From Membranipora membranacea (lineage: Eukaryota > Bryozoa > Gymnolaemata > Cheilostomatida > Membraniporidae), in the NCBI GenBank assembly GCA_914767715.1, contig OU612075.1, forward strand, positions 3,474,001 to 3,538,000: 64,000 nucleotides of DNA. Direction: 5' to 3'. Below are positions 1,414-61,603 of this stretch, in pieces; position 1 is the stretch's first letter, and the number at the start of each line of letters is the position of its first letter. The notes under the pieces are model-generated. The model ran no database searches. It saw nothing but the letters and a program-made list of their open reading frames with translations, and was not told the DNA's origin. The translations under genes and the position numbers were made by a program.

Positions 1414-1451
1414 TTCATTTCACCCTTCATCTTAAATGAGGGTGTTCATTT
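1414..1451. mobile_element. Micro-palindromic insertion (24 bp) with 7-bp direct repeats
   Basis: The core 1421-1444 begins CACCCTTCAT and ends ATGAGGGTG, an imperfect inverted repeat with one base missing on the right arm. It is bracketed exactly by the direct repeat ttcattt (1414-1420 and 1445-1451), which looks like a target-site duplication. It starts with CA and ends with TG, as do the other members of this set. Confidence 0.55.
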
Positions 1452-3034
1452 AAACCTAAATTTCAGATTGTAATTCATAGAAATTCTATCATGTTTTGTC
1501 ATCAAAAGTCTCATCACAAAGCGTATTTTTCCTAACTACTCCTGACCTAACTATCATAATTATAAAAATTACCCATTATAATACAAGATAACTTTTTTAC
1601 ATGATAGTGGTCATTAATGTTGCTATAATATTTACTCTAAATGAGTTAATTGATGTATATACTATTGTTGCTAATAATTCACCAAAGATTGTTGGAATTG
1701 GTTTATTCATAATCTATTCCAAGGAGAGAACTGAGAGGTTAACTTGTACATTATAATGCTGCCCTAGATTTAAACCTTTACACATTGGTAAGATAATTTA
1801 AACTTGATCTCCATCATCACCCCAGCAGCGGAAAGGAATGTGTTATAATTTACATGAATTTGTGTGTCATGTAAGTTTGTAAGCTGATGTCGGTCAGTAC
1901 ACAAAGCTAATGAGCTGCGAAGAAGCGCTTTATTTTTTCAGCTTCTTTTACATCTGTTGTCATTTACCAACTCATGCAATCTTGTTTACAATCTGCCTAC
2001 TTAACATGAGTAATCCAATATGCACCTCATTGAGTACAACTCATTAGTACCAACCTTGAGTTGTCTTCTCTCCCTTCTGTCTTCTCTTTGCAATCTGGAA
2101 TCATCATATCTTGGCACTGTGCATATTATCGCCATATGATCCGATTGACTTCTAGCACCTTGTTTGGGTATTTTCTGTTGAGAAAAGAAAATAGAAATGA
2201 TAATTATTTGTTAGTGGATAGGTTAATTAGTTATAGTTTAGGGTAGGCCACAGCTGCTCTGGTAATTCTTTGTGTTTTGAAAATAATAATGGTAATCTAA
2301 TGATTAGTGAACACAAGCTCTTGATTTTTGACTCGGTGTATACTTTTGCTTCAGTTCCTCTCCTACACAGTTGGCTAGGTGGATATATCTGTAACACAAT
2401 GATATAGGCACTGTCCTGGATATTCTTATTCGTGTATAGAGTCCTAAATAGTTATTAATTATCAATCTCATTATTGATATTAAATATCAAACTCACCTGT
2501 TTGCGTCCCTGAGATCTACCAGCCACCATCTAAGATTTAGTAGATCCTTACTCTGTCGTACAATCCACACACCAGGGCCCCTTGTGACCATTTGAATGTC
2601 CTACAACACTCCTTATAATGACTATAGAATTGAAATTGGATAAGGCTTGTGTTGTTTTTAGTGTTGTCAAAGTGACAACTTGTAACAGTTATTGTGTCCT
2701 TTGTTTTACAGTATAAAAAATGTCTCTAGACAATTTAAGTTAACTTAATTTGACTTGGACTTCAGTGACAGAATAATAAAAGGTGAATGGAACTAGCCTG
2801 TGCGTGAATGTAAATGTCAACAATTATATTGAATATACATAATAACCATGTACAATAGTTTGCCTGGGGTATCACTATTCAAATACCAGTGTATTATAAT
2901 ACGCTGGTCACAATAGCTACTGCGTTTATAATAGGTCTAAGATATTTAGTCTGTTATTTCAAGTGGGAGGGGTTAATAAAATTTCATGTTAGGTCACAGA
3001 ACTGCTATCGGTATTTACGAGTTCCAAATTCACT

Positions 3035-3072
3035 GTTCACTCAATGAATGAGAGGGAGTTCATTGGTTCACT
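3035..3072. mobile_element. Micro-palindromic insertion (24 bp) with 7-bp direct repeats
   Basis: The core 3042-3065 has ends CAATGAA and TTCATTG around a 10-base centre. It is bracketed exactly by gttcact (3035-3041 and 3066-3072). The terminal motif is shared with the element at 61543-61568 (CAATGAAC), so these look like two copies of one family. Confidence 0.65.
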
Positions 3073-3417
3073 AGCTTGAGTGGTCTTATCTTCAAGTTTC
3101 AAGACTGAAGGATAAGTTGAGTTGCTCGCTTCTGCCAAGAGTCTTATCTCCAAACTTCTACATCTTCAATAGCATCACGTCAGGTTGAGCCACATCTATG
3201 ATAAACTATTGGAGTATCAATTATTGCTATTGTTACCTCAAACATTTGGACATTTGTATAGCTTTGAAAAAAACAGATACATAATTGTCTTAACTGATAG
3301 TATCTGTTATTGGATATCGATACCTGATACATATACTGCTCTGCTGCATCGAGGATTTTACGACCCGTGTTATCTGGATACTACAAACTCAAAGAGCGCA
3401 GCTGTCTAAACAGAACG

Positions 3418-6400
3418 ATGTCATCGACTCTGTCAGTGCCTTCTCCGCCTCTCGGCCCTCTGCAGGCTCTTGATGACCTCAATCAGAGCCCTCTGTTCAG
3501 GAGACGAGCGAATACCCGGGAGAGGGAACATCTCAGGCTCATACAAGCTAAACAACACGCTGACAGAGAGGCAGCAGCGGCGGGAGCCATGTCGTCAGGA
3601 GCGGAGTATGTACCGAGACCAGCTAAGCCAGGAGGGCATGTTAATAACAACATAGGGGATAGTGTTGATCTCAATGTGTAAGTCAGCTGTGAACTATGAA
3701 GTTGTGCAAAAATTGTCACACGGGTTTAGAGGTTATTACTTTGTACCTCCTTTTTTGTGTTGTTTGTTTTCTGCTCAGTACCTCCTTTGGATTAGCTGAT
3801 AACTCATGTCAGTGTTGTGCTGGAAATGAGTAACTCGTGCATTCATTGTGGCTGTCAGGTATAGTTGGGTTGTACTCGTTGCACTTAAAATGGGAAATAT
3901 TTTGCAAAGCATCATCATTTCAACAAAATTCTTTTTTAGTTCTCAATGTAGGTCAGCCTTTATTAAGAGTGAATGACTATCATATCACCGAGGGAGGTGT
4001 CCGTTACTCTCAAGGCTCTATACTACTCTACACTATGTTTACACTCTTATCTAAATCCTACTCAATCCTCACTGATAAAACATGAGCAACAGTGTGATAT
4101 GATGCCAGCTGCGGCCTTGGTTACAAACGCAAATTTTTGCAGAGCTCTTGTCGCGGCTGCATTGAAAGCTATATTTAGAAATGTGCATCAACTTGTCGCT
4201 GCCCCAAAGCTTAATGTCTATGGTTTTAGCTCTGATAATGACTGGCAATATATTTTGTGGCGACATTTAGCTTCATGCGCACAGGTACATGCATTTGTAC
4301 TTTAGTAACCTGTCTGCATCATTTGGTATATCTCACGTAGAGGACTGTGATGCTACCCAAAAAGTAGTTTCTGTTCACATGTAAGCCCTAGTCTCCGAAT
4401 GTTGAGTTCAGAGTTTGAGCCCATAAAAGAATTGAGTACATAAGGACCAACGACCTGTAATCGAGATAAAAGCAACCGCCACCAGTTAGCAATCACTGAC
4501 CACAGGACTGATATTCCCATTCAATATTATAAAAATACACTCCGACATTTTAACTGGGAGTCTGACATGACTTATTGGATTTTTTCATCTCTTGACACTG
4601 TACACCAGAGAATTGATAGGTTAATTCATATGACTGTCTGTACACTAGTAATTGGCTGGACTGTATAATAACATACCACTGTCATTGTCACCTGTCCTGA
4701 AATGTCACTCTCTGAAGCATTCCAGAGCATCTATCAACTTCTGAGCTCCATCAGAAAAAGTCACGCTAATTGTTATCTAGATAGAAGATAGGAATATAAT
4801 TATATCTACCTTTCACTTTTAAATGTGCAGAATGTCAAAACAGGCTCTGCAAAGGTGGATGGCAGGTCAAATTCCCTTAATTTGGTTCATGATCACCTTT
4901 CATATTGTCACTCAGTGCCTCGCCACCTTCATACCTCTCCACCACTTGTTCATCCATGGCCTCTTAAAGGCTAATCCTTCACAGTTTTTAGTATCCTCGG
5001 TAGTGTTGCCGTAGCTGTCAAGGCTCATTCATTATTCACCTTTAAATTGGGTATTTAACCAGGGAGAATTCCATTCTCCCTGGTTAAACTAAGTTCAATA
5101 AAAGTCATGTTTCTTTTGTCTTTGCATTGTAAGTTTTATTTGATTGTTTGGTGATATATCATTCATCATAAAATTTGGGGCTTTACATTGTTAACTTTGG
5201 TAGTACTTTCTGCATAAAGAAATTCAAAGTTTTTGTTGCGCAGGCAGAGTAAGTGCCTGTATGTCTATTTCGTTAGGGCCATTACAGGTTTGTGATACTG
5301 TTATTGTTGTTGTAGGGATATGCAGCTTGCTCCAGATGGCTCTCTAGCCATCTGTGCTCGTTGTAATGAAGGATTTGGACCTACAGATAAGATAGTTAAC
5401 TCAGGTGGTGAAGTGTGGCATCCGCGATGCTTTGTGTAAGTACAATTCTGCAGTTTAAATGAGGATGCTTCAGCTGTGAACTTACATCAGTACAAACTTT
5501 TTTTATAGTCATTATGTAGGCAAGAATATGGTCGTGTAATGCTTGAATTCATACCACTAACCAAAATACATCACCACACTGAAAATACAGAGCACTCCCG
5601 TTTAATTCTGGGGACCACAAAGTTAATCTGAATCAAGCGATGGCGGGAAAGGGATAAAATTGTCACAACTTTCAGCCAAAATAGAGGACAGATTTGCCCC
5701 CTCTTGTATTAACTTGCCATGCAACTGTTAGCTGATATAATCTCTGCCGTATTTTGCTGACATGTTTTGATGATGTGTGCCCAGGTCTCCACACTACTGT
5801 TACCATTGTCAGGGTGCAATCGACGCCAAATCACAGAAAATGGTCAATTATAACGGGCGTGTGTGGCACCCCCACTGTTTTGTGTAAGTATAAGTCCAGC
5901 GGCAATGACAGCATGCGCCGGCAGCCAGTCAGCGGGATGCTAGACTTAATTGTCTATTCTATGGATGCTTATTATGTCACAAACCTTTACCAAGCTATCT
6001 CAGTGTATCGTCAATTTAACCCATCTATGAACGCGCCATGGTTATGACATTCTCAGGGTGTTTTGCTTGGCGGTTTGAGCTGACTGAGTTGATGTGCGAT
6101 GTTGGGAGTTATCAGTGTAGCCCTCCCCTTTACGTGGCCCTTACCTCCGCTGACGCTGTTTGAATAATGGATTGTTGAAATTACTTCTTGCATTTAAATA
6201 CAGCCGGACCCCTTTCTCTTTGATTGGTCTGGAATGCTCAGACAATATAAGTTATCTTGTCTGAGTAACCAGACTTTCCTTCCATACAACTCCAACAAAA
6301 TTTATGATATAATTGTCCTGAGTCTCAGACCCCAACCAATATCCATCATCATTTTAAATTATAATTATGATATCTAGCCTCAGTTGGGCATGGTTCCAAC

Positions 6401-9400: not shown

Positions 9401-12400
9401 AGTGGGGGAGAGGTGACTTAATGTTAGCTAGCATCGATAGCTTGCAGAAATGTAAATGTTAGCTAGCCATGAATTACTCTATTTCAAGCTGGTACAAAGT
9501 TTACTCCTCTAGGGTACTGCATCACAGGCAAAGAGAACATGCAACCTTCCAGTCACAATCAAAATAAATACTGTGATCACTGATTTTCTTTTGCAGTACG
9601 ATAATAGATGAAGGACATATCAAATATCGGGGTGAGGTGTACCACCCGTATCACTTTAACTGTGGGTCATGTGGATCTGAGCTTACAGCTGACGCCCGAG
9701 AGAAGAATGGAGAGTTATTATGTCTGAGATGTCACGATAAGGCCGGAGTACCAATATGTGGAGCCTGTAGACGACCGATAGAAGGCAGAGTCGTCAACGC
9801 TCTAGGTATGATATCTATTACTGATGACCAGTTGTTGTCAGACATTTTTGTTGTGGTTTTGGCTATTATCAAAAATAAACAGCAACATTCTCATCGTTTA
9901 TGATAGTCTTTAAAATGTCATAATGATAATAATATAAGACGGTGCGGATATGGCAGTAATATTATGAGCATAATGGTGATAGGTCTATATACTAGGATAC
10001 AACGCAGCTCTGAATCATCTCTCTTTTAACATATATCTTATAAACAATAATGTTGATTTTTGGAACAGCTTATGTGTGCAACACATAGACTTTATATAAT
10101 ATATTATAGTATATTAAGTCTATGGTGTAACATTAGAATTGCACTAATCAGAGTCTCTTTATTTTCCAATATCAATGAGAGAGTAACTCCATAATAGTAT
10201 TTCAACTAATGTTAATTGTTTCCAAAAAGAAAAGAGCAGCAAACTATTATGCTCTACTAACGAGTAGTATAAGCTATTACTTCTTGGGCCCTCCTGGTGG
10301 CAAACTGTTGACTAAAAAGACTATGTATCTATCACATATTTTCAATTGCAGGTAAAACGTGGCATCCTGAGCACTTTGTGTGCGCTAAGTGTGAGAAGCC
10401 GTTCCACGGATCACGTCATTATGAGAGGCGGGGCTTAGCGTACTGTGAGATACATTATCATCAGCTGTTCGGAGATCTCTGCTTTGTCTGTAATAAAGTG
10501 ATACCAGGAGATGGTGAGTTGTAATTGTCTCCCTTTTATCACCTGTTGAATTTGATCCTATAAACTAAGGCTAGGCCTCACCAATAACATTACTTGGTCT
10601 AGCTGTCCCTCTGTCCACATAAAAATTCGGCCATGAGACAAACTTGCACTTTCATATAGCATCGTTACATCCAAAAAAGAGACCAATTGAGGACCTATCG
10701 CTTTCACTATGTTTTGGAAATGGAACACCTGCAACCCTATGTAGACCAATTGTGAAATTAAATTGAACATTTATTTAGTACATGAAGGATAGTTCAGTGA
10801 TAGGCCTGTATGCTTTATAACTGACTTAAATAAATGTTCAGTTTGCATCCTCAATAGTGATCACCGCAAAAATACACTTATACTTTAGATAAATACCTAG
10901 CCTGTCTCAGCAAAAATTTGCAATTCGTTGTACAGTTTCTATCGTCTATTGGCAGGTTGGTCGGCTACCCCACAAACTATTGTAAATAGAAATCCTCATA
11001 AAGTTAACAAGCTATATTCACCATGTTTCCATGCGAGTTTCGAGGTTGGCCTAGATCGAGCTGAGTTGTCACCTCTTGACTCGATCTCGAAATATGGAGT
11101 CATTCCCATGTTAGAGCTGAGAAAAAAAAACATCAAAAAAATTTGCCGCCTCCGGCCACTCGAGCTCGCTGTAGTGCAAGCCGAAATGTGCAAGCTGAAC
11201 CTTGGAGCTCAGGGCGATCTCGGAGGCAGTTCCATAGCTCGAAGCTAAGGCTAATTAGCCTCAGGTCGACCTCAAAACTACCATGGAAATGCAGTGAATG
11301 TTCCAAGTTCCATATTCAATACCTGAGATAACACATTGAGTAATCATGCTGTTCTTCTTTATTTTTACAGTATGTAAAGCTCTGAATAAATGCTGGTGTT
11401 TTGAACATTTCTCATGTTCTGTTTGTGATCGACAGCTAACCGAAAAGTAAGTGTTGTCTCAGACATGGATACATCTAATCTAGACTCAGACATGGATACA
11501 TCTAATCTAGACATGGATACATCTTATCTAGACTGATACTCAGACATGGATACATCTAATCTAGACTGACATTACATGGATACATCTAATCTAGACTGAC
11601 ATGGATACATCTTATCTAGACTGATATTACTAGCTGTCCAAACAGTAGAGCCTACATCCTACCCCCCCCCCCCTGTTACTGGATCATTATGTGTTTTGGC
11701 CTGACCTCTTCTCATCTGCTATGTTAGGTTATATATGACCTGTTGGATGCAGTCTGTCAGCCCAGGCTACATCTGGTACACGGGGTCACTGATTTGTTGG
11801 CTTCTGAAGTAGCTTCCCTTAACTTGCACATGAAATGACAGACATGCCAATGGTGAATGTAGAAGAAATGATTAATAATCCTCTGGTGTTTGGCTGATAA
11901 GCACCATATAGGTACTACATCAGGATCCATCAGAGCTTAGCAGATGATTATTTGGGCCCCGTTGATCTACTTTTCCCATGCTTCTCATTCTGATGTACAG
12001 TTTATTTAAGCAAGAACGTGTGTGGCCAGCGGCAAACAGAGGTAAAGGGTCACTACCCCATACCTTAGCTAAAGTGAGCAAATAAGACCACTGGAGTGTA
12101 AACAGGAGATTTAATACCCCATAGTATACTGATTCTGTTAATCTCGAGTTTCAATGATAGATTTCATGAATTCAATAATTACTGGCTAGGGCGCAAAATT
12201 TAAATCTGTGAATAGTACAGTAGGGTAGTGTTGTCTATTTCAAATTTTTTAGTGGCACGTTTAGGTTTTAATGATTATGCCATGTAATGTAGGTTTTTAT
12301 TAAAAAAAATTTATTATATAATATTTTATTATATATATTTTGTATTATTATCTTTGCAGGACGAAGTTTTTTGTTATGGATGTAAAGCCTGTATGTAAGC

Positions 12401-12471: not shown

Positions 12472-12484
12472 ACTTTCTACTCAT

Positions 12485-14403: not shown

Positions 14404-14451
14404 TTCAGACCAAAGAGTTAGAGAGAAGAGTCTCTAACTCCTCGTTCAGAC
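14404..14451. mobile_element. Micro-palindromic insertion (34 bp) with 7-bp direct repeats
   Basis: The core 14411-14444 begins CAAAGAGTTAGAGA and ends TCTCTAACTCCTCG. The arms match at 12 of 14 positions around a 6-base centre. It is bracketed exactly by ttcagac (14404-14410 and 14445-14451). Confidence 0.6.
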
Positions 14452-16246: not shown

Positions 16247-19200
16247 ATGCAGTCGGCGATGAGTTCAAAGTTTCATCCTTACGGAATGTATCCCCAGCAT
16301 AGTCACGGATCTCACGCCGTCCACCAGGTAAATAATACATCAGCAGACTGTAAATTAGCAACATCACAGCTCAAAAACTATTATTTTATTTATGTATTCA
16401 TTATTGTATTGTACGCTGTAGCACCCTCTGTCTCATATTTTAGTAGAATAAAAGAATTATTTATTTACTTATCTTAGTTTACTTTTGTTTGTATGTTGGG
16501 AAAAAAATTAGTGATTCACAACCCCCATGAAAAATTCAAAAATGTTTGGCTGCGTAATCTCAACATGCTCTCAGTAATTGAGAAAAACATAAAAAATTCA
16601 TTTCCCTTCTCCCAATAAAAGTCTTGGTGATCTGGGATTCGCTTTCATTAGATACGGCATATCCAAGAGGAAATAAAACAAAATAATTTTGTTGCTTTAA
16701 TGGAATCGATATTCTGCTATCTTTCCATTCTGTTTGGCCCTTATGGTTTCTCAACAATTGTAAATACGAGTTATTGCATTTAGTTATATTTCAAAGTTAT
16801 TTTGACTTAATTCGATTAAATAAAGGCAACACTTTTGAGACCAGGATCATATCTCTGACATTTCATTCCAATGTTATTCCACTGCATCATTATAAATTAA
16901 CTTTTAATTGCTTAGTTTTAGGAATTGTTCATCCTCTTATAATCTCTGTTAGTGGGCATATTATTCTTTGAATAGGAGTTGCCTTTGCTTTGCGATATCA
17001 ATTTCAACAATCATAGACAACTCCCAAGTATAAGAAATTATCATCATTTATGCTAATGTCACATTCTATGACAAGGGAATATGAGTAGGTTTGGATGTAG
17101 ATTTGGACATTGCCGGATGTCGTGACTCAGAGTTGTTAGGTTAATTTTCTGAATACTGCAGCATTCATCTGTCAGAGAACCTGAATCAAAGTTCAAACAC
17201 CGATCATTGAACTTATACGTTCATATCACTTCAGCCTGCGTTATGTTTTTTAAAAGACTCATCTCATATATTCAACATGATGTAGTGATATCTCACAGCG
17301 GAGATCATTATAAATTAACCATGATACAAGCTTTTCTGTTTCCTCTGCTGTAAAACGGTGTGGCATTTTTTAAAAACCCTCTGATTTTTACAAAAAAGCT
17401 TTTAAATTTGTCCCTTTGTATTTAGTATGCTGGGATATTTTGACAGTTGGTACTTGACAGCCATGTTTATATTGACATTGTATGGAGGGTGCCCTAGTTA
17501 TGTCAACCATATGTAATTAGAGGATAATGAATGGAGTTCACTTATTGGATTCTTACAGTGGCTTTACATTGTGCAGCTATTCTTGTAATGTTAACATTTC
17601 AAGTATCGGTCCGTCTTGATTCATAAGACAATAGAGATATCGACCAAGCACAGGTGATGCATTGCTAGTTTTTCCCAGCATTATAAATCAATGACCAAAA
17701 GCCTTCAGCTAATATCGCATCGCATTCATCACACTGCCTTCTGGCTTTTAACATCAGTTTGGACATTTGTGTCATTAAAAAAGTTTGTTTAAAAATGATG
17801 GCCGGACACAATTCTCGGATCTCTCACGGTTTTGGCGCCCCTTACACCCCTGCGGGGGGTTACAGGGCCGACCCGCGCCACTCGGGGCAGGTGGGTTTCT
17901 TAGGCAGCACCGTCATCAATTATTCTCTAGAATTAGGATAAATGTCATTAAATATACATGCGCTTATTGTTGATGGATAATAATGGTGCTGGTAGATCTG
18001 CATGACTTTCTTTGACTGGAGTAATAATTAACGCTGTAAATTATGTATGTAAGTTATTTATCATGATGTGTGATTTTCTGTGATTGTAAATTTTTGATGA
18101 TCTGAGTATTTGGTACTAAAAGAAAAACAATAATTGTCTGTTTTGAGATAAACAAAGGGTTTTTCTTCATAAACTCTATATTGATAAGAAATATTATTGC
18201 TTTAATTTATATAGGACCCCGTAAAAAAAGAGCAGAAAAATTTTAAAATGCAGTAACAAAGCTGAAATAAATTATATCAGGTCTTATTCGTTTATCACCT
18301 TTAATAATTTTTAGAAGTAAAAATATAAACATATATTAAATTCTATAATAACAGCTTTATATATAATAACTATTAATGTTATATTATTATTATATATCTC
18401 AAGTTGTATAATGTTTAACAAGTTATATAATGTTTCCTTTATTCTTTTTGATTACAGGGTAACATGTTTGGTACGATGGAGGAGTCTATGCTAGCGAGAG
18501 TTGAGGCATCTCTCGCTGCCGTCGCTGATATTAAGAGTCATCAGATGCAGCAGGCCCATCATCAGCCTCAGTTCAAGCCTGATCTCTACCCACATGATAT
18601 GTCTTATATGAACAACGCTGCCGCGGCAGCAAAACCTCACTTCTCATTCAATAGTAAGTTAAACACTGTATACTTACACTTAAACTTAATTATGATGAAA
18701 AGAAAAACCTTACAGGAAAATCAACAACAAATGTTATAAAATAATGTATGGAGATTGCGCATGATCAATTTTTAGTATTCTTTGTTTTGCACCAAAGAAA
18801 ATAAATTTTTCAGAAGAAATTCAATTTGCAAATACATATTTTTAAAGTGCTATAAATTAAAGAGTACTGAAAATTGTAATTATATTATGATATTAATCAT
18901 ATCTTTGTATTGTGTATTACAGCTGGTGATGGAATGATGGACCACATGTCAAATAATCCCCCCTCGTCAGCCGGTCTTATGTCAGCCGGCAGCGCAGGTA
19001 ATCACTTCACATCATCGCTGACTCAGCTAACCAATATGAGCTCACATCACAACCCCGCTGCCGTAGGAGGGATGATGGATCAGCAGCACAGTAATAATTA
19101 CCCTGTATCAGCGGCAGCAATGTACTCTCACAGTACGGCAGCGAGTATGCTGCCTCAGATGTCTATGTCACATCCCGTCATGCACAGTCTACAAGAGGTA

Positions 19201-29893: not shown

Positions 29894-32800
29894 ATGGCCT
29901 CTATGGGTCCGAGATACAGCAAGGATAGTACAAAAGATGTGACAATCTCAGACGTAGCGTCTATACTCAAAAATGGTTTCTTCCTTGTCACAGGTAAGAG
30001 CTCAACATTGCTTGGGGAAAAAAAGACTATCAGGTGTTGACTACCACTACAAGCAAAAATCATCACTGAACCTTGATTCTATGGTGCTTACACCTTGCCC
30101 ATGTCGCTGTTAGTGGTGGATTATGTTATGCTGAAATCAGAGAATTGGCCAAAATTTCAACAACTCTTCACCCTTACCCATTGAGCTTCATCCTCAACCA
30201 CAATTCCATGCTACCAAATTGTAAATCATTCAGATTAGATGCCAGTAGTCTAATTAGCCATTAGTCATATAATCTCCGATCAGAGCTATCATTGAACTCT
30301 GAACCATTCATTAACGATATAACCATATGCACCAGTGTGAGAACTTTTATAATCAATTTAAAATAATTACAGTGCCTCAAACTTTGTGACACAAGATTTG
30401 ATATAGCAATCGGAATGTAGTTATTTACCTATAGAATTCATAAAGTTGCCCAATCTCAATGCAGTAGAGAACACTCAACAATGAGGACAGTGAAGTACAA
30501 TCAGGACTGGCCAGGACTGGGTCCTGAAGAGTATCACAGACAGTAGGCACCAGTGAGCCCTCAATTATGAGTCAAAGCAGAAGCGCCACTGCCAACACAG
30601 CGTTATCATAGAAAATCTGCCATCCAAGCCAGCTTCCACCATCTAAACTTTCTGTCAACAATTATCTGCAAGGCCCGGACTCATCAGAGCCACCAAGCCT
30701 CAATATAAAGAACCCTGGCTATTCTTCGCATTGCAAGAGCTCGCAAATCTGCTGTTGCGGTTACAGCGATAAATAGCTTTCGAATATGACTAGAACATGT
30801 TACATGTGTTTGAAGCTGTATTTTCAGGGTTTTTTCCGTAGCCACTTTCATATTGGCTTTCCTCAAACACTATATTCTGCAAAACAACTCAAAGTATGGA
30901 AAGGGATCAGCTTTATATTCTCTGTGTTGTTGTTGTAGGGAGTACCTCCGCTGAAGGATCTCCTCTTGTTTTCTCACTGGATGGGATAACTCCTGAGCCC
31001 GATGAGGACACACAGAGAAATGCTCTTATATATATAGCAAGTCTCCCAACGTAAGTAACCTGCTGCCCATAATACACAGCATCATCTTATATAAAGCATT
31101 GTAGTTACTCCTGTGTTCATCACATAGAATCTGTATTACAATTATTCTCTGCAAGATAGTACCCCACCCACCCCCTTAGCGACCGCATATGGATGCGATC
31201 ACCATCCTGAATGACACTAAAGGCTGGTTTAAGACAGTACATGGAGGTTGCAAGTTTACTGGATACAATGTTGACTTCTGAGGCAATGCACTATTCTCTT
31301 CTGATATTTCTGATTGGTAATGAAACGTGAAATCATCATTATAGTATTATATAATATCGCTGATACTGTTTAGACAACCTTGTATAATGTCAAATATCTA
31401 TCCCCAGACCCCACGCCACACCTTCCCACCCTAAACTGAGCCACCACATTTTAGTCAAACGGTTCCGTGCATTACATAACACACTGTTGTCAAGTCATAC
31501 CACAAACTCTGTACCCTTCATAGCACCCTCTCATTGGTACTGCAGTAATCCTGTGCACAGTCTTCAGTAACCATATGCTTGGATCAAAAGCCCAAAACCT
31601 CACATTTACTCCAAATCTTTGGTGAAGGACTATTATTTAAATTATACACCCTGCGGTGTCCAGCCTATGTGCGGCAAAGGAATGTAGCGACTCTCCCACG
31701 AGATGCCATGTCTCTGATCTATTACTATATACCATGTGAAGGTGGGAAGAGGACTCGCTAGACTAAATCCTAAAAACAATGCTGATACCCACAAACCCCA
31801 TAAACCAAGATACTTAAAATAATCTCTACACTAAGGCTAAGTTAACACATAGACCAGGAACCCCACTGAGGTATAATATCCATAATCTGTGAAGAAACTC
31901 TTGCTTCAGACTAGATAGTCGTTTTAAGTAAGGTAGTTAGGTACGGAGGTATGGAGTAGGGTTAATATTGAAGATCCCGTTTTTTGACTGATAAAAGATG
32001 GATAATAATCATTACACCAGTTGCTCTGTGAGGCAGAAGACTATTATGAAAGCTTTGTATAATTTGTTAGCAGCTCCTATGATTTCCTACTTTAGAGTCA
32101 AGGATGCAGCAAAACGGTATATCAATTATACATCGTAAAAAGCCTTCAAAATTATACTAACTCATACCCATAGACTTAATATACTATATTAAGTCTATGC
32201 TCATACCTATGTAGAGTTTTGGCATGTTTGGATGGCTAGTTGCTGGATACTGACTAACATCATGTATTGCCTTGCTCTGCAGCATGTTTTGTCTTGTACC
32301 CAAACCTGACTTTACGAATTATTGCATCTCTGTAAACATTGTGAGATTCTTGGTAGGCAGCCATATTTAATTATTCTGCAGCCCCACTTCTTTTTTCCAT
32401 TTCAAGGTTTTCGGCTGAGTTGTTAAGATGAATAACATTTTTCCCATTTTGCCGAAGTCGTCCAGTCGTGGCTTGCAAAAATTTTATAACACGGGGAAGC
32501 TTTGGTGCTGATAATTTGCCATTGAGCGATATTTAAATAGGAGGCTATAATATCTGCTATTCCTCCTAGTTTTTTCTGGTCACATGCACATACAGACTAT
32601 GGCCTTGGGCTTGTTGCATGGCTTTATTGTCTTGCAAAGACGCAGATGTCATCCTGGCCACGTTACTGCACTCACGTATTTCAAGTAATTGTCTCCACAT
32701 AACTTTCATTAACCTTTTTTGTTGTTGTATAGTTTCTCGACAGACAAGAACTTGGATTATTGTTTTGTGGTGGATCGAAGGAAATCCTCTTGGACATGTG

Positions 32801-35800: not shown

Positions 35801-38800
35801 TTTAGCTGTCTTTCCAGCTTGTCAGCATGTCTTTCCATGCTGTCACATGTCTTTCCATGAGTCAGTCAGTAGACAAGTACACAGGAGAGGTATACACCCT
35901 AGGGTGCTGGGGGCTGGAACAATCAACATTGAAAGCTCCCCCAGTGGGGCTCGAACCCACAACTCCTGCGGCACTAATCGCCTGGCAGTGAATAGCAAGC
36001 GCGCTAACCGATTGCGCCATCTCACCATCCCCAAAAAAGAATGGGTCGATGGCGCTAATTAGATAGCCCGCTATTCACTATGTCTATTAATGTGATATGA
36101 TGCCATATAACATTTCCAAGTACCCTGTATAATTTCAGTTTTGTGACAGTCATTGACTTTGGTCATTTGTTACTTTACTTTTCTTTCCTGCCTCCAGGAT
36201 AATGATTGGGAGCGCCATGTTGCTGAATTTTAAAGAACTATTTTTCACTTTGTAGACATCCTTTAACAGACCTGTGAAAGAGATAGTGTTACTTCAGCCT
36301 AGCGGGTTTATACAGAGACGATGGAGCTCCAGCGAGACCATCAAACTACAACAAGATTTCCCTAAATTACAAGTAAGGCCATCAGGGGATAACTCCTAAA
36401 TATTCTCTAACAGTCCTGAGTGAGTGTGCCAACAGGGAGGGGGACACCCTCCTACTAGACCAACTTTGATCCAATTGACTGCATTCCAGTTGCTCCCGAT
36501 CGGACCAAATGGACCAAACTTGGTCTCCCCTCCCACCCTCCTTGTTGCCAACAGTGGCGGCCAACCGACCTAAAGACCAAAAGATTTGATACTTTCAGAT
36601 TCGATTGCAGATCCAAAGAGGTGCCAGGTCGGTATTACCATGCCTAATTAGTCATGCAAACTGGAAGTTCACTTTCATTGATGAGTAGTTTTTAATTCTC
36701 AAATATTATAACTTGGGGCAGACTGTATCAATCAGGGGTGATAATTGGAAAATAGTAGTAGTTGGCGAAGCTCTGAATTACTAATGAGGAGACAGGTTCA
36801 CTTGTGGCACATGTATAAATTATAAACTGTGACTCACTATTAGTGTGGGCAACACCTTATCTTTTGGAGACCAGCCATTTGATGCCACCACTTGATATTG
36901 ACAGGATCTGAAGTAGAATTAAATTAGAAAACAACAAAAAAGGAAACTGTACAATCTCTTACCAGCGCATGACAATGTTGTGAACCAACAGGTCAAAGTT
37001 CCCATCAGATTTTTTGTGATTTAACTTATTATATTATGAGTATTGTTATGGTTAATTATGAATATGACGCTCGTTGATATCGTCCCCTAAACCCCCCCCC
37101 CTCCCATCTTTATTGATTCTAAATATGCTGCATTATTTTGTTGTACTTTTGTGACTTGTATTAGGTATCATTCTGTCTGAAGCGCTATCATTGCATAACA
37201 TTGATATGAATTCAATAATATATATCAGTGTTGCACAATTAAAGATCCAGTATTCATACAATATATACCATATATCCCCCAGTATATTGAGCATACCGCT
37301 CTTAATTTTTCCCACCAGGTGGTAATAATGGATGACACTGAATCTCTAGTGAGAAAATTTGGAGAAGAGTCTCTAAGTTCTCAGCTGGGAGGAAGTTTAG
37401 ATCTGAATGTGGACAGTTTTATACAACAGAGAATGGTGAGTGTACTCTAAATGTACTCTGAGAATCCACATCCTTTTGGGAATGCTGTCATCAATGAATA
37501 TATGCGACAATATATATACATATATATTTATATGCTGTAGTTCAATGACGCTATAGCCTATAATGATAAAAAATGTTTAATATACAATGCAAAGGAAATA
37601 GTATAATAGCAACATGATGCTAAATATAATGCATGTATTTGCGGAGATTCCAGATACGATGCAAAGCTTTTCTATAGAGTTTATTTTTGTTTTGTTGGCT
37701 ATGATAAACCTATTAGCACTCATGATCTCATGATGAGGATGACGCATTATGGAGTTATGGAAGTGTTTCTGACTCATGGGGACAAACTGTAACATAATGA
37801 TATAAAAAATAAAATTAATTATAAACTTGTATATATATAAATAAATCTGTCTAACAAGTTACCATAGATAACCTATCTATCAAGCTTTGTACTGTTTTTG
37901 GAGTTTCCAAGCAATTGACGCACCTTTATTACTGGTCTTTGCCCTCAGTAGGTTCAAATAAACGTAAAGTTAATCATGCCAAGAAGCTAGTACAGAGTCA
38001 ATATCCTTAATCGTCACCGCTTCTCACGGATACAATGTCCAGCTTGGGTAACAAATTCCCAGACAAACTCCACTAAAGCTACACCAAACTAATGATACGA
38101 CACCAGCGTTCCCTAGTCTGAGCGCCTCAGACTGTTGCCCCTGCTCGACGGTCCCCCGGTAGTGTAATATTGATTGTTTCCTACAGTCTATAGATAGTCT
38201 GGAGACAAACTGTGTAGACTTAGAGGAGAGAGTGAAGGAGTTGATACTGGATGACGCACAGAGTGATTTCGATATTCCTAACGACGTCGCATCCACTGAG
38301 GCATTACTCAATGAGCATGCGGTATGTCGAACTATAGTTTACTTGTAATTTAGAAAGGCCCTGCATGATAATCATCTAGGAAGTCGATGTGCCTAACAAA
38401 TCTGAGAGCAAGACTATTTTGCTGTTAATCCACACCACATTCAGTTGGCTCGGAGTTTTTTGCAAGGGCGTTGCTGGTGGTTGTTTGTTGGTGTGGTCTT
38501 AGCCCACCCCCATTCCTTACCAACAAACAAAGCTTACCAAGACAGGCTACAAAGTGAACTAGATGGAAGTCAGTACTAAATTATATTCACATTTTACAGA
38601 ATTATCTACTATTTTGTATGGTGCATACCGTTTATAGACCAATATTTCGGAAGCACACTTATCCTCCTAGTAATTCTCGGAAATTTATTGAGCCAGAAAC
38701 AAATCACAAGCTAAACAAAGCTGGTGCAAGGTGGTAAAATGTATAGTCCTAATAGATCGCGCAGCGATTAGTAGATGAGTTATAGACATCATGATGGTTT

Positions 38801-41800: not shown

Positions 41801-44800
41801 ATAAATTTTGAATGTAAAAGTAGACGATGATTAAAAAATTGTCACTTTTTATTTCAGAGTTTATTAGCGCGAGCTAACACAGTAGCTAAAGAGTGGGGAG
41901 GTAAGCTGACCACCACCGATGAGATCACAGTGAACACTGTCACTCCTAAATGTGAGGAGCTCGTCAGACTACATGGTCTGTGTACAGAATCTCTAACTTA
42001 TAAACAGATGCTGGCAGATAAACAATCTACACTCTACGTCCATATCGACGCTGTGAGTAACACTTATCTATATTCACAAGTTTGATACGTTTTTGTGTAT
42101 AAGGACTGGTCAAGCGAGTGGGAGCAACTCCAAATAAACGCGAAGTTGACTAACTTTCATCCAGAGTAATGCTTGTGGAAGTTAGAGATGCAAATATGCC
42201 TGTGTAACAAAATTAAAATATGCTCAGTGCAGATAGTAAGAAGCATGAAGTGGCGTTTTGTAGTTGTGCCGTCTTACAACAATATTTCTGACTCAGAATC
42301 ATGGGCTGCGCTAACCTCTGATCTTTATCTTTGACAATCATTAGGTATTCTCTCAAGCAACATTTTTTATATGATGTACCAGTACATTAAAAAGTGATTT
42401 ATTATTTGATGATTTTGAATTTTAATCCTGTGCTGGATTATTGTGAGAATCATGGCTCTATGCGTAATTAGGTGGTATTGGTAGGCTATAGGTCAGACAC
42501 CAAACTGGGTTGGTCTCACTCCAACACCGTCAACTGACAACCTGCTACTTTACATAATGTGGCATTGCATTGATGTGGAAGTAATGTTTGGTAGGATTAA
42601 CACAATAAAGCAAGTTAGACACGCCATGCTGTCTGGGTGGCCGTCTCGTGTCGCTGTGTGGGTGGTCTTCTCATGTCACTATCTGGGTGGTCCGCCAGTT
42701 CGTGGTTTGACAGTATTATACAGTGACTGTTGATATTTTTTTCTGGCTTGGCATCTAACATGTCAAACATAGACATATCTGTACATTATACATGTCTTAC
42801 CAAACATAGACATAGTGACTATATATATGTCAGTGAAAATAATGAGAAAACAGCTGTCCATATTGAATGGAAACAATCTTGCTGTTGAAATGCTGTTGAA
42901 TGTTAAGTCCTGTGATTTTCCCCAGGGATTAGATTATTCTCTGGTCTGTTTACAACAGCTTTCAGACTTGACTCATCATGAGTGACTCAACATTATACCC
43001 AGTATTCAGACATAAACAATCCCCATACATGGATGTTTGACCCAGACAAAAGCCAACTCATTGAGGACAATGCTCTGATTTTTGTGAATCATATGCCCCA
43101 AGAAAGCCAATGTAGAAAACCACAGAGTTTGAGCAAGGAGTTCAAGTCTTTAACTCCCTGGTTTGAGTCATCCGAAGATTCAGAACCATAACTTTCAGTA
43201 GAAGGGGGGACCTCACACCCAATCAACTTCAGGCTAGGTCCGTAGACTAGGTTAACCCTGAAAATACGACACGAGAGTTTTTGGATCAATATCAAAGACT
43301 TTCCTCTTCCGAATAACGACGAGTTGGCATTGAGTTAGGGAAGAGGTTATGTTTTGAGTACTTTCTCTGTTTTATCTTCCTTTATTACGACATGTAAAAG
43401 GGAAATGCCTAACGTCACATAAATTCTGATCTCTTAATCTATTTCTGAATCCACTTTGGGATTGTTGGTAAATTTATGGACGTCTTTTAACCAAAATTTT
43501 CATCGCTTGATCCGAGCTTCCAGGGTGGAGGATGAGATTATGCAAACATTTGCGGTGAATTTTGAAAGTTAATAATTGTAAACTGATTTGTTGGTTAGAA
43601 TATATCTAATCAGATTTGCTACCTACATCACATTACGTATTATGACATGTCCGTAAAATCAGCTTATTGTTTTTTATAAGCGAGTATTGGTAAATTTGAT
43701 CCGATGTAAACCCTTCTACGCTATTGTATCCATAGCAACACTTCTCTCAAAAGAGATTGTGAGTAATTAATAATTGTCGCATTGACAACACGATGATTCA
43801 AGCACTTCACTTGTTCATGTCATCTCAAGTCAAGTCATTTTAATGCGAGGGCATTGAAGAGGAAGTTGACTGTCCTATTTCACAGGATAAGAATATTCAG
43901 TACAATTTTATTTTGTTTCCTACAAAGGCAAGGCAGTGGTTAGCCGATGAAGATACCAGCCTGTTTGAGCCTTTACCCGAAGGTTTAGAAATAGACGACG
44001 TTACATCACTGGACGGTCAGCTTAAACAGATAGACTGTCAGCTGGCTATTGGGAAGTTTCTGGATATTCTGAGCTTTGATAGTTTTATGCTGACGTACTC
44101 GACTGCGCTGAATGAAGATTCTACTGTAAGTTAATCAGCGATGTACTTACTGATCCAATATCATATGTTACCAACTCATTACCAACTCATTACTTATGTG
44201 TATATAGCATTAACATTTAATAATTGAATTAAGTAAATGTTATCAACAAATAGGCTACATCTATCTTATCATTTTCATTGTCAGCTTCATTTTATTCGCT
44301 ACATGAAAATTTTTTCAAGCACAGTTCGTAGCTCGGCTTTCTTTCCACCATGAACTAATTTTATTTACACCATTGCTTGCTATGAGTTAAATCATTACAC
44401 AACACAGGGAGAGTGTAGTATAAATCATTGTTTACAAGTGGTTTGGTACATAACAAGGGAACTGAATTTTGTTGTTCATGTGGATTTCTCGGAAATTGAA
44501 ACAACTATTTTATTTCTTATTTGAACAGGACTCGGTTATCTAGAATTTAGGCATTCTTTAATAATAACACTATGTTGTTTCCTAATTGTCCAATCATTAG
44601 GGGTATATGGCCTACTGTTCTTTTGGCACTCTCCATTAACTTTCCTCTACAACCAGGAAAATACATCCTGGCACTCTAAGAGGAGCCAAAACTATACTAT
44701 TGGTTTGTTGAGGGTCTGTTTGTACCAACCAGTCCATTTCCTAATAGATGATAGATGAATATAAGATTACCTCATCTTTGTTAGCATATTCTGCATGTGT

Positions 44801-54281: not shown

Positions 54282-54767
54282 TAAACAGCTATTCTCATTT
54301 CAACTTTTTTTTCAAGGTCATTTGCTTTTTTATTCTATGCTCAAAATCATATCCCTTCATTGCGTACACCAAACGGCCGGATACTTTACGGCTATTTTCT
54401 GCTATACCCTCCCCCTTTTCCTCAAATGATATTCTGCGTCCTGGGTTTGATCTATTATACAATGCAAATGATAAATGTTCGAAGTATTTTGTTGTTGATA
54501 TGTTTCACCCGGCATGAGATTTCTATGCAAGATGAGTTCTTCCTTTGTTATTATACTTTTCCCATACATATTCTTCCCAATATTGTACATATTTATGAAC
54601 TGTTTGGTGCTATCCACTGAATTTACTCTGTCTGGTCAAAGTCGGACCAGACCGAGTTATTATAGACATATTCAAGGTTGTTTTGTTTGTGCAAGTTTTA
54701 TATATTTTCTTACATTTGTTAGAAATAGTACATCTCATTAATTTATTTCAAATGTAATTATCAGATG

Positions 54768-54773
54768 AATAAA
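54768..54773 (+). terminator. MCF2L: Likely poly(A) signal of the Rho GEF
   Basis: AATAAA lies 486 bases after the GEF stop codon, at the end of an AT-rich, otherwise featureless stretch. Confidence 0.55.
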
Positions 54774-55607
54774 AAATATGGCTTTAACAGTTTAGAAAGT
54801 GTGCCAAGTGTAAGTAAATAATTATTTGCTGCAGGTCTACAGCTTTGATGTTAAGGCAGTAGTAGATTGGTAGTTATGTCCACATTCTCATTCACTGCAG
54901 CGCTCTCAACTCATAACATGCATTCATACACAAGAGCTAAGGGTTAATTACCGAATGGCAGCACAGCATAAGCAGCTTATGATGATGAGAACATGTCAGC
55001 GTTATCAGGAGCAGCTCCGCTAAATCTATAATCTCTATAATTATATCTACTGTACTGAATAATAGAAACACAGGGAGGTAGACCCAAGGTCAACACAAGG
55101 TCAACGCATCAACATTCAAGCCTGATAATAATGTAACATATCTATTACCCAGAAACAGTTAGAGCTCGAAAATACATGAAACTTCGATTTAATTTCAACA
55201 TATATGAAGCAAGAAGTTGTACAATATACAACTTCTTGCACAGAGCATGATATGATGAGTTACCAGTCATTCCACCTAATCTGAATCTGTAGAAACATAG
55301 AAATAGAAACAGAAATAAGATTTATAAGTGACAGGGTAAGCTGATATATAAAATTTATGAATAAGAAAAAAAATCATAATAAAACAGTATATCAAGTGTC
55401 AACATGAGCAAAGTAATGAGAGACTGTTCAGGTAGTGCATAACGTAACTGTGCGTAACATAATGACAACAAAAACTGTCTGCCACCGCGTCACATGTAGC
55501 TCATGGAAAGACAATTCCAAAACATATCTTATTTTAGCTCTTTTCTCAATGAGTAGTATTTCGGGCCCTTGAGTCTAGTAATATGTATCACAAAGTTAGT
55601 GAGAGAT
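54774..55607. other. Interval between the convergent GEF and scramblase genes
   Basis: No exon was seen. It probably holds the scramblase 3' untranslated region (read leftward). It includes a perfect palindrome with 13-base arms (55209-55239, centre caata) for which I found no flanking direct repeat. Confidence 0.5.
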
Positions 55608-58600: not shown

Positions 58601-60594
58601 TATCCTGGATAGTACAAAGACAAACTATGTGACTGAGATCAGCAAGCGACTAGTGACAGTGATAACCTCAAAGGGTCGTAAAGCAACAGCAGCACAAATG
58701 AGCCATGAGAGCTCCTACAAACAAGTCAACAATCAATCAGCAGATGTGGAAGCATAAGCTTGCAAAACCTCCTCTGCACAATACAAAGATAAACTGTGTG
58801 ACTGAGATCAGCAAGAGAGATACACTGCAGCAGGACACAAGGTATTTGTATGAGCATCAACAATCAGCAGCAGATGAGGAAACGATGCCAGTAAATGGTG
58901 TCAAAAACAAATCAACAGTCTTAGGTCTGCCTGATGCCTGTGTATGGTTAGATGAAGGACTGACAACGCATAGGTAAGAAACCATCAGACAAAGTAGACA
59001 GGGCAAAAATCCCTACCGATTGGCTTGTTGATATGCAGTAGCAGACCTGTAACGTCATGTTTATAAGTCGTTGAGTGGAAAAATTACTGTGAAAACTGAT
59101 ATCTGGTGATTAGAACGGACACACAGCGGTGAGAAAACTACAAATCATACTATTAACTACCAAACAACTACTAGGGGAGAAAATCACCCGTTCTTCACAC
59201 CTGGAGACAACATGGACACCAGCAAGTAGTACATCGCATAGGTCGCTCTAGTCGGATAACTTCTCTATTTGTGTTGTCCACTATGTTTATTGTGAACGCA
59301 CGCTGCGGACCACAGATGTTCCTTGTGCAACAGTTTGTATCTAAATGTAGAATCGGTCATTTTAAAATGATCAGTTTTTTAAGATAAGCCAGGCTACAGT
59401 ACAAAATATCATGTTTACTTTGATAACAGGATTTGCAATATTGATTGGGTAAAATATCATTATGTTATCAACTTCTCTTGCAGTGGGTAAGCAGAAGATG
59501 TAGCAGCTCCAACAATTTTTCAAAGGGATCAAAATTGACTTGATTAGGACTTCTTGTTTCTTTGATTTAATACCCAATAGAATTGTTGAAAATCCTCAAT
59601 GGACAGTCGTTACCATTAATATGCAGATACTGATATGATGATTTGATCACATGACTAACCTTCAGCAGCATAGTACACTCTCTGTCCCAGGCTGTTCTTT
59701 ATCTCATATTTATTATTTGTCTCGAAGCCAATAAATGCTAAAATTTAGAAAATTAGTTAGTTGATGAGAGTTATCCTATCTATTGTCTACACCTCACAGC
59801 TCTAGATCCTAAAACCTATTACTCAGAGCAGGGAGTCCCAAACTCCCTGCTCTGAGTGACATATTATATGTAACACAGTGAGCACATGAGGTTAATCCTT
59901 GAACATTTGTAAATGCATCATGGGATGCCAGCAGCATAAAAATCATAAACTTTGGTGTCAGCACACACTTCCCATGGACATTTGATCGATAACGAACAAC
60001 GATGTTGTGATGACTCACCTTCTACGAGCTCAGTTTTCTGCTGGACAAGAAGCTGATCAACTAAAGCAAGATACTCCAGACCTGGTGGGCAGTTAGGTGG
60101 GGCCTGTGGAGCGGCCATCCATTGGGCAGCTGAATTAGAAAACCAGGTTGTGATAATAATCTGGATAAAGTTTCTTATTTAGCAATGTTGGCTTACAGCA
60201 GTAATGTATTGTATATTTTTCATGAATAATGATAAGTTATGCTTTATATCTGTGTCCAAAAATAGAACAAAGATTATATGCTCCAAAATGTGTTACAGAG
60301 TAAACAAATTTAAAAACTGCAAACATCCTTATATTATCATTCCTTACATAAGGTACGAGACGAGACGTGTCAGATGCAGCATTTCGAAATCTGCCACTAC
60401 TTGATGGAATAACTACATTATCTGAGTGATCGATCGGAGGTCGATTTGGCTTATTTGAAAGACCAATGGATTTTTGCAAAACAATAGCAGAGTGGGGTCC
60501 AGCTCACCAGTTCTATTCAAAGCATCAGCTAAAAAAAGCACAATTAAAATATAAGACACTCACCCTGAGGCTGGTTCTGTACTGGTTGAGCCAT
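55608..60594 (-). CDS. PLSCR: Phospholipid scramblase
   Basis: Minus-strand exons 60594-60564, 60129-60019, 59737-59660, 58445-58306, 57070-56906, 56486-56325 and 55670-55608 join in phase (249 aa). The N-terminus is short and Pro-containing ([15 protein letters not shown]). The scramblase core follows: [20 protein letters not shown], then the Cys clusters DCCTRNCCG (about 76-84) and CSTCWCPC (110-117), which in this family are palmitoylated. Next come [14 protein letters not shown] and the Ca2+-binding loop [16 protein letters not shown] (about 201-216). A hydrophobic segment reading [13 protein letters not shown] (about 222-234) lies next to a hydrophilic tail. It is expected to be a Ca2+-dependent membrane protein that mixes phospholipids between leaflets. 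An acceptor at 60642 shows an untranslated upstream exon is likely. It is convergent with the Rho GEF. Confidence 0.94.
59822..59856. mobile_element. Micro-palindromic insertion (21 bp), CAGGGAGT ends
   Basis: The core 59829-59849 has perfect 8-base ends CAGGGAGT and ACTCCCTG around five bases. The flanks ctcagag (59822-59828) and ctctgag (59850-59856) match at 6 of 7. Because ctcNgag is itself nearly symmetrical, the whole also reads as a 16-bp hairpin. It lies in a scramblase intron. Confidence 0.5.
60508..60528 (-). CDS. PLSCR: Candidate 21-nt microexon of the scramblase
   Basis: On the minus strand tttttttag precedes and gtgagc follows a 21-nt segment that keeps phase 1 in and out. It would add seven residues (ADALNRT) between exon 1 and the CPPGLEYL exon, in the variable N-terminus. 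Splice sites and phase fit; use is unproven. Confidence 0.35.
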
Positions 60595-61481
60595 TATATT
60601 ATTGCGTTAGATTATCCCTGACTAGCTAGTTAGTATGATACCTGAAAACAGAAAAAATGTAATCATTACAGAGAGTAAGTGTAATTTGCTCCGTCTGACA
60701 TCAAAACATACGCTGATTCACTTCATGGTAGTAGACTGATACGCAATGTCATATCAGCGTTCAACTACCAGCAGGCCATGTTGTAAAGCTTTCACTACCT
60801 GCAAGTAGCTGACACAACGAGTTGTCAGATGTCCCTTCAGCTGTCATAACCAGCAAAGGCATATATTTGGCTCAGTCATCAATTGGCAACAAAAAAGATG
60901 TATTACCAATTTACAAAATCCGTTAATGTAATAAATGTATGAAATATCAACACTTTACATTTTCAATTAGGATACTAGAGCCTACCCTATTTAACTTTAT
61001 CAAGATTTTGACGTTCAACAACCTGATCATGTATTGACACATCAAATAGGTCTAACTTTGGTTGTGGGCTAAAAATCTATACTCAAAATGCATGTGCAAG
61101 ACCTAGCCGAACGCCCAAGTTGGCCTACAAGTCTGCTTCCAAACAAACTTTGACCAAACATGAGCTAAAGCTACAGCTTCGTGAGTTGGAGCTATGGTAA
61201 GTGTCCGTCTTATTGAAGATTGGTTATGAATATCAGTCACCTATTGGGCACACGACATGAGTGATCAAGAGTAGCGGATAATAACATCAACTCAAACTAA
61301 GTAAAACGATTCAATCACTGGAATTGTCACTGCTCATGCGTGCGATATACGACCACAACAGCAGTTGTAACGGGTAGAACATTTTCAACGCATTCGAGAA
61401 AAATGTTGTGGGTGTGACTGTGACTTCATCAAAGTTGACTCACAAGAGAATGACATGATGACTGGTTGGAAGAAACTGCCA

Positions 61482-61513
61482 GTCAGCCCAAGGAGTTAAC
61501 TCCTTGGTCAGCC
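61482..61513. mobile_element. Micro-palindromic insertion (18 bp), CAAGGAGT family
   Basis: The core 61489-61506 is a perfect palindrome, CAAGGAGTT then AACTCCTTG. It is bracketed exactly by gtcagcc (61482-61488 and 61507-61513). It is the first of three such insertions within 125 bp. Confidence 0.7.
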
Positions 61514-61535
61514 CATACATTCGATTTTAATAGAT

Positions 61536-61575
61536 ATAAGATCAATGAACTAAACCTTTAGTTCATTGATAAGAT
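61536..61575. mobile_element. Micro-palindromic insertion (26 bp), CAATGAAC family
   Basis: The core 61543-61568 has perfect 12-base arms starting CAATGAACTAAA around two bases. It is bracketed exactly by ataagat (61536-61542 and 61569-61575). The end motif is shared with 3042-3065. Confidence 0.7.
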
Positions 61576-61603
61576 ACCACCAAGGAGTACTCCTTGATAC
61601 CAC
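61574..61603. mobile_element. Micro-palindromic insertion (16 bp), CAAGGAGT family
   Basis: The core 61581-61596 is the perfect palindrome CAAGGAGTACTCCTTG. It is bracketed exactly by ataccac (61574-61580 and 61597-61603). This is the shortest member: two 8-base ends joined directly. Confidence 0.7.

What the first reader, a model, noticed from the sequence alone, without database searches (positions are those of the whole stretch)
1414..61603. A set of ultra-short palindromic insertions, each bracketed by an exact 7-8 bp direct repeat
At 1414, 3035, 10076, 14404, 32161, 43127, 61482, 61536 and 61574 a palindrome of only 16-41 bp starts with CA, ends with TG (CG once), and is flanked immediately on both sides by the same 7 or 8 bases. 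One of the nine, 10076, has a single mismatch in its 8-bp repeat. Another copy, 59822, has 6 of 7 matching. A 7-bp match exactly at both edges has about a 1 in 16,000 chance per palindrome, so this repetition is not accidental. The structure is that of a transposon reduced to its two terminal inverted repeats. Excision scars of hAT-type elements can leave palindromes, but those copy local flanking bases, whereas here end motifs recur at distant loci. Known MITEs are usually several times longer. This may be an undescribed class of minimal mobile element, or a recurrent collapse of longer ones.
Basis: seen in the sequence. Interest (0 to 1): 0.88.

Follow-up and report, generated by a model that had tools for sequence, protein, structure and literature searches.

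The report
Excision scars of P-element transposons
The tiny palindromes look like stumps left where jumping genes of the fruit-fly P-element kind were cut out and the break was glued shut; this bryozoan genome carries many of them, and they record how the cutting and the repair work.

Summary
The palindromes are best explained as excision scars of P-superfamily DNA transposons, not as a new minimal mobile element. P transposase cuts 17 nt inside each element end, so both flanks keep a terminal inverted repeat (TIR) stump; joining the stumps gives duplication + stump + inverted stump + duplication. Evidence: 134 P-transposase matches in the genome. Two P families with CATAGAC ends and 8-bp duplications were read; the 6.4-kb one shares 18 nt of its end with the window's two 8-bp scars. 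For the 4.9-kb one, 89 of 90 listed scar ends keep 22 nt or fewer, although its intact ends agree for 35 nt. For the 7-bp CAAGGAGTT class, none of 20 sampled 17-nt ends runs on into shared sequence; 11 are 17+10 joints and 7 are 17+1 joints, which have lost one arm but keep the duplication. Joining two 17-nt stumps at microhomologies of 3 nt or more predicts four products; all four occur, and two of them lead a separate listing of 76 sites. No intact parent of the 7-bp class was found. Strict density: 10-11 per 200 kb.

The parts
1414..1451 (.). Probable scar: TTCATTT + 24-bp insert (1421-1444) + TTCATTT; arms match for the first 6 bp
   Evidence: its end type (CACCCTTCAT) was not seen in the 200-kb sample and not searched genome-wide, so the weakest exact case
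3035..3072 (.). Scar, CAATGAACT-type end: GTTCACT + 24 bp (3042-3065) + GTTCACT
   Evidence: right arm CAATGAACTCCCTCT also in L016 at 8033
10076..10132 (.). Scar, CATAGACTT family, 8-bp duplication with 1 mismatch (GTGCAACA/GTGTAACA), 41-bp insert (10084-10124)
   Evidence: right arm shares 18 nt with the end of the P elements, left arm 9 nt
14404..14451 (.). Scar, CAAAGAGTTAGAGA-type end: TTCAGAC + 34 bp (14411-14444, ends CG) + TTCAGAC
32161..32207 (.). Scar, CATAGACTT family: CTCATACC + 31-bp palindrome (32169-32199) + CTCATACC
   Evidence: left arm shares 18 nt with the P-element end, right arm 15 nt
43127..43167 (.). Scar, CAAGGAGTT class: GTTTGAG + 27 bp (43134-43160) + GTTTGAG; length and make-up of the 17+10 product with two differences
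59822..59856 (.). Probable scar: CTCAGAG + CAGGGAGT-type 21-bp insert (59829-59849) + CTCTGAG (6/7); the flanks also pair as an inverted repeat
61482..61513 (.). Scar, CAAGGAGTT class: GTCAGCC + CAAGGAGTTAACTCCTTG (61489-61506) + GTCAGCC; the TTAA product
61536..61575 (.). Scar, CAATGAACTAAA end: ATAAGAT + 26 bp (61543-61568) + ATAAGAT
   Evidence: similar ends at L021 6453 and L019 3205
61574..61603 (.). Scar, CAAGGAGTA end: ATACCAC + 16-bp palindrome (61581-61596) + ATACCAC; its duplication overlaps that of the previous scar by 2 bases
62888..62925 (.). Possible decayed scar (24 bp, CAAGGGTAAC..ATTACTCCTTG), flanks 4/7; not counted
   Evidence: weak
55203..55245 (.). Possible decayed scar: 29-bp palindrome CAAGAAGTTGTAC..TACAACTTCTTG, flanks only 3/7; not counted
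   Evidence: weak
5053..5089 (.). Possible scar: CAGGGAGA..TCTCCCTG hairpin with nearly self-complementary flanks (5/7); not counted
   Evidence: weak

Best explanation
Each palindrome is a repair scar. A P-superfamily transposon inserted and duplicated 7 or 8 bp of target. Its transposase later cut each end with a long stagger: about 17 nt inside the element for the CAAGGAGTT class (18 is possible if the unknown next base is T), and about 20-21 nt, blurred by short matches at the joints, for the CATAGACCTACTA family. Both broken flanks kept a 3' single-stranded stump of TIR sequence. The two stumps, copies of one sequence, were joined by microhomology-mediated end joining (polymerase-theta type), sometimes with short inserts. 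The result is target duplication + stump + inverted stump + target duplication, 16 to 77 bp in the cases seen, with intact outer edges and a varying centre. Shown: the anatomy, the bounded retention, P-element parents for the 8-bp class, the positions of the commonest joints. Inferred: that the cut was made by the P transposase, that polymerase theta joined the ends, and that the 7-bp class has a P-superfamily parent.
For: P elements are abundant: PF21787 gives 134 matches at E 0.001 or better (150 of 211 candidates scored; some matches are pieces of one copy), 0 of 14 control genomes. L047/L048: 4933 bp, 99.86% identical at two sites, different exact 8-bp duplications, TIR CATAGACCTACTAATAATAAACC; the protein has THAP, P-type HTH, RNase H and GTP-binding domains and matches Drosophila P transposase 6p5a at 6.7e-13. 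A second family (6419 and 6373 bp, exact duplications GTTGATAA and GGATATAT, 96.5% identical over the 5.6 kb compared) has end CATAGACTTAATATACTACC; one arm of each of the window scars 32169 and 10084 shares its first 18 nt. CATAGACCTA palindromes of 20-50 bp: 150, control 0. Of the 50 listed, 45 are of this subfamily (5 others left out); 89 of their 90 ends keep 22 nt or fewer. In the 20 of 50-80 bp, 38 of 40 ends do; the intact ends agree for 35 nt. Of 20 of the 50 read with flanks, 16 have 8/8 and 4 have 7/8 duplications. CAAGGAGTT class: of 20 sites with the 17-mer (of 201), 11 are 17+10, 7 are 17+1, 1 has an insert, 1 is unresolved; 19 of 20 keep a 7/7 (10) or 6/7 (9) duplication. Joins of two 17-nt stumps at 3 nt or more give four products, all found: the 18-bp TTAA form 165 times, the 27-bp form and 17+G, and the 21-bp form; in 76 sites merged from the 100 listed rows the 21-bp (21) and 27-bp (16) forms lead. 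Experimental P scars have this form (PMC2895639 Table 1, section 7 read in full); the '17 nt staggered cleavage' is called unusually long (PMC7776569, one passage).
Against: No intact parent was found for the 7-bp class: 0 of 20 sampled 17-mers run on into a shared sequence, and one further P locus (5 kb, L097) showed no convincing TIR pair. The third commonest product (24 bp, 8 of 76 sites) is not among the four predicted. The 8-bp family's retention peaks at 18-21 nt, not 17. One of 20 long palindromes keeps 41 nt on one side and one keeps 25. By extrapolation, scars outnumber P-transposase matches about a hundredfold, which is not explained. The samples are not all independent: six of the 20 long forms are near-identical 63-mers on C7, two pairs of the 50 are identical and close together on C2, and L094/L095 have identical flanks. 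The 17-mer sites were chosen by their 17 nt and those by 13 nt, and only the first listed rows were seen. The gap limit (50 bp in all) caps how much could be seen. Many other short hairpins in the window have no duplication.
Confidence: 0.92

Rival explanations
1. A minimal mobile element: 16-40 bp palindromes that themselves transpose, mobilised in trans.
For: One 18-mer occurs at 165 places, with an exact 7-bp duplication of its own at 14 of 20 sampled; a 30-mer with one difference at two sites.
Against: Centres vary within one end family; 7 of 20 sites have one arm reduced to a single base yet keep a 6/7 or 7/7 duplication; the frequent forms are mostly those predicted by stump joining; Drosophila P needs at least 138 and 216 bp at its ends, and mosquito P-MITEs keep P-derived ends of under 100 bp, read there as a need for about 100 bp (PMC1562414 passage).
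Confidence: 0.03
2. Internal deletion or abortive gap repair that left very short remnants, with no fixed cut position.
For: One of 20 palindromes of 50-80 bp keeps 41 nt of one end; incomplete repair products are known for P elements (PMC2895639, passages).
Against: Retention is cut off near nt 17-22 although the intact ends of the CATAGACC family agree for 35 nt; counts fall from 150 (20-50 bp, 10-nt anchors) to 20 (50-80 bp, 13-nt anchors); no excess of 7-bp-flanked pairs of 61-9000 bp in the window (3 against 1.55) or of 61-6000 bp in the 200-kb sample (3 against 1-3).
Confidence: 0.03
3. Scars or MITEs of another superfamily (hAT, Dada, Mutator).
For: CA ends and 8-bp duplications also occur in hAT elements (recalled).
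Against: hAT scars copy flanking bases and do not keep long TIR stumps (recalled); Dada-U6 and Dada-U1 elements have no TIRs and target RNA genes (PMC3706591 passages); the 8-bp parents encode P transposase; both classes share a G-T start of the duplication.
Confidence: 0.02

Closest known systems
Drosophila P-element excision repair junctions (PMC2895639 Table 1)
   Same: Target duplication + up to 17 nt TIR + microhomology or insert + TIR + target duplication; identical joints recur
   Different: There induced in flies with a marked element; here natural and at many sites of a bryozoan genome; one family keeps about 20-21 nt
Galileo (P superfamily)
   Same: 7- or 8-bp duplications, consensus GTATTAC (PMC4168063, abstract passage); here 7 and 8 bp, most often starting G-T
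   Different: Galileo copies with two TIRs vary widely in TIR length (765/757 bp in the most complete copy); the passages read describe no bare-stump scars
P-MITEs of Anopheles gambiae (PMC1562414)
   Same: Non-autonomous P relatives with 8-bp duplications (passages)
   Different: Elements with P-derived ends (under 100 bp) and unrelated centres; not bare stumps
Zebrafish Pdre2 (PMC10983969)
   Same: CATACC-type end, 8-bp duplication, P-type (THAP9) transposase (passages)
   Different: There excision of fly P elements by zebrafish THAP9 in cell assays gave larger flanking deletions

Membership tests
P superfamily (the 8-bp-class parents) | P-type transposase: THAP, HTH, RNase H with GTP-binding insertion | tested here: met
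   (L047); for the 6.4-kb family only the RNase H match was seen
P superfamily (the 8-bp-class parents) | CA..TG TIRs with 8-bp target duplication at independent sites | tested here: met
   two sites; two sites
P superfamily (7-bp CAAGGAGTT class) | Intact element with these ends encoding a P transposase | tested here: inconclusive
   none found:
P-type excision scar | Target duplication on both sides | tested here: met
P-type excision scar | TIR stump bounded near nt 17 | tested here: met
   7-bp class: (nt 18 ambiguous where it is T); for the CATAGACCTACTA family the bound is about 20-22
P-type excision scar | Microhomology or insert joints | tested here: met
P-type excision scar | Made by transposase cleavage in this animal | not testable with these tools
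   needs biochemistry or haplotype data
MITE (mobile) | Copies share their interior as well as their ends | tested here: inconclusive
   centres vary within end families, but some forms recur exactly
hAT scar | Scar built from flanking bases (recalled) | tested here: not met
   TIR bases are retained:
Dada | No TIR, insertion into small-RNA genes (PMC3706591 passages) | tested here: not met
   inverted ends at dispersed sites; no Rfam match at the window's scars

The most novel reading that the evidence does not exclude
The scars are not only fossils of past jumps: P-type elements, above all the 7-bp class whose intact parent is missing from the samples read, are cut out in bulk on a developmental schedule (germ line keeps them, soma of the colony carries scars), much as ciliates remove internal sequences.
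Probability: 0.05. Interest if true: 0.93.

Novelty: new member of a known kind. Interest (0 to 1): 0.62.

Why it matters
A natural archive of P-type excisions would let one read, from an assembly alone, where a transposase cuts, which microhomologies the repair uses, and how often gap repair fails. Strict sites number 11 in 200 kb (10 if one doubtful site is left out), which extrapolates to roughly 17,000-19,000 in 339 Mb. It also warns that short palindromes with direct repeats should not be annotated as MITEs, and suggests that stagger length differs between P families (about 17 against about 20-21 nt), which is testable.

Tried and rejected
Considered in thought only: non-canonical or tiny introns and ciliate-type internal sequences; dropped once the window proved animal (POU4; LIM, RhoGEF below its cut-off, scramblase twice, MSL2) and P parents were found. 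Dada was checked in print and dropped. Long-range pairs of CA..TG ends in the window and 200 kb: no excess at 7 bp. A search for the 7-bp parent at P loci L045/L046 (TIR over 1.1 kb, outer end not reached), L071/L072 (right end not reached) and L097 gave none. The CATAGACTTAATA genome-wide count did not complete.

Literature: 10 searches. The listings, which looked for earlier accounts, showed none of such palindromes as natural P scars; only titles and abstract starts were seen there, and only open-licence papers are held.
Full report
Observation. The repeat is 7 bp in seven cases and 8 bp in the two with CATAGACTT ends. With CA..TG ends and exact repeats the shuffled controls give none; a laxer scan gives 26 against 3-9. 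Twenty ten-kb stretches elsewhere gave 7 more sites with 7 bp and 4 with 8 bp and none in shuffles; one of the four (CATTAATG) looks like another palindromic element. Allowing one mismatch in the repeat, window and sample together (264 kb) give 20 and 12 against shuffle means of 3.6 and 0.6. So the phenomenon is genome-wide. Left unexplained: an excess of 6-bp-flanked pairs of 61-9000 bp in the window (13 against 6.0), and a general excess of short hairpins.

Organism. The best named relative of the POU4 exon is an annelid. The genome behind the window has 339,339,785 bp; contig C1 is 41,072,641 bp and C5 29,963,023 bp, which equal the longest scaffold and N50 of Membranipora membranacea in PMC10290214 (passages).

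Parents of the 8-bp class. A search for the P-transposase RNase H domain gave 134 matches, none in 14 control genomes. Two loci hold a 4933-bp element, 99.86% identical, with TIR CATAGACCTACTAATAATAAACC and exact 8-bp duplications; its ORF carries the P-transposase domains and matches the solved Drosophila enzyme. Two more loci hold a 6.4-kb element with end CATAGACTTAATATACTACC. One arm of each of the window's 8-bp scars (32169, 10084) shares 18 nt with that end; the other arms share 15 and 9.

Bounded stumps. 150 palindromes of 20-50 bp carry the CATAGACCTA end, control 0. Of the 50 listed, 45 belong to the subfamily of the 4933-bp element; of their 90 ends, 63 keep 18-21 nt of the TIR, 24 keep less, 3 keep 22-24. 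A further search for 50-80 bp forms found 20; 38 of 40 ends keep 22 nt or fewer, one 25 and one 41, and by eye the extra length is mostly AT-rich or copied TIR fragments. Six of these 20 are near-identical 63-mers on C7 and may be copies of one event. The intact ends agree for 35 nt, so a collapse without a fixed cut should often have left more. Twenty of the 50 were read with flanks: 16 have 8/8 and 4 have 7/8 duplications.

The 7-bp class. The 18-mer CAAGGAGTTAACTCCTTG has 165 copies; of 20 read, 14 have 7/7, 4 have 6/7, 1 has 5/7 and 1 has 2/7 duplications. The 17-mer CAAGGAGTTAAAGACTT has 201 places, control 0. Of 20 read, none runs on into a shared sequence: 11 continue as TAACTCCTTG or a near variant (27-bp scar), 7 continue with one G and then the duplication (18-bp scar with a single arm), 1 has an insert, 1 is unresolved; L094 and L095 have identical flanks. 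If two 17-nt 3' stumps anneal at 3 nt or more, four products are possible: CAAGGAGTTAACTCCTTG, the 27-mer, the 21-mer CAAGGAGTTAAAGACTCCTTG and 17+G. All four are present; the last base of the stump, nt 17, is needed for two of them. Among 76 sites merged from the 100 listed rows (279 forward and 295 reverse matches in all, reversed control 0), the 21-mer (21) and the 27-mer (16) lead; a 24-mer (8) is not predicted, and 31 sites have other forms.

Mechanism. In Drosophila, P excision leaves 17-nt 3' tails, and repair joints have the same anatomy, including identical joints recovered many times (PMC2895639: passages; section 7). The 17-nt stagger is described as unusually long for a cut-and-paste transposon (PMC7776569 passage). 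The duplications most often start G-T (7 bp: 48% G, 74% T; 8 bp: 62% G, 59% T; both strands counted, so the A-C end is its mirror; 29 and 16 duplications), which resembles Galileo's GTATTAC at 7 or 8 bp (PMC4168063 passage). Steps shown: anatomy, bound, parents of the 8-bp class, joint positions. Steps inferred: the enzyme for the 7-bp class, polymerase theta, and germ-line timing.

Open points. No intact 7-bp parent was seen; scars look far more numerous than P-transposase matches; whether all scars are inherited events or some reflect developmental excision cannot be told from one assembly.

Noticed in passing
window 33863-36080: Tandem array of a 404-bp unit, 5.5 copies at 99%, with six tRNA-like matches on the minus strand (30.1 bits, cut-off 29); ARAGORN found none.
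   Followed up: no
window 61482-61603: Three scars within 122 bp; the duplications of the second and third overlap by 2 bases, so one element landed at the edge of the other.
   Followed up: partly
window 5054-5088 and 59821-59857: Nearly perfect hairpins in which a near-palindromic 7-bp flank pairs as an inverted repeat; possibly scars whose flank mismatch was corrected by template switching.
   Followed up: partly
L045/L046 (C11 7.31 Mb, C3 34.6 Mb): P-transposase ORF of 762 aa, 99.4% identical over 5 kb at two loci; L045 lies between inverted repeats longer than 1.1 kb, outer ends not reached, which recalls Galileo.
   Followed up: partly
L070/L074 (C11 3.77 Mb): A 6373-bp P element sits inside what looks like a CACAGAGTAAGGATATATCC palindrome, i.e. 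inserted into an older scar.
   Followed up: partly
L019 293 and L021 5985: Another palindromic family (CATTGCTGCGAAACC..., flanked by CATTAATG) at 178 and 56 bp, probably unrelated.
   Followed up: no
window 6445, 25582, 48042: Dispersed repeat of about 60 bp, 77-83% identical between copies.
   Followed up: no
window 9577-63924: Gene pieces: LIM domain, POU4, a RhoGEF match below its cut-off, two scramblase exons, MSL2 CXC.
   Followed up: partly
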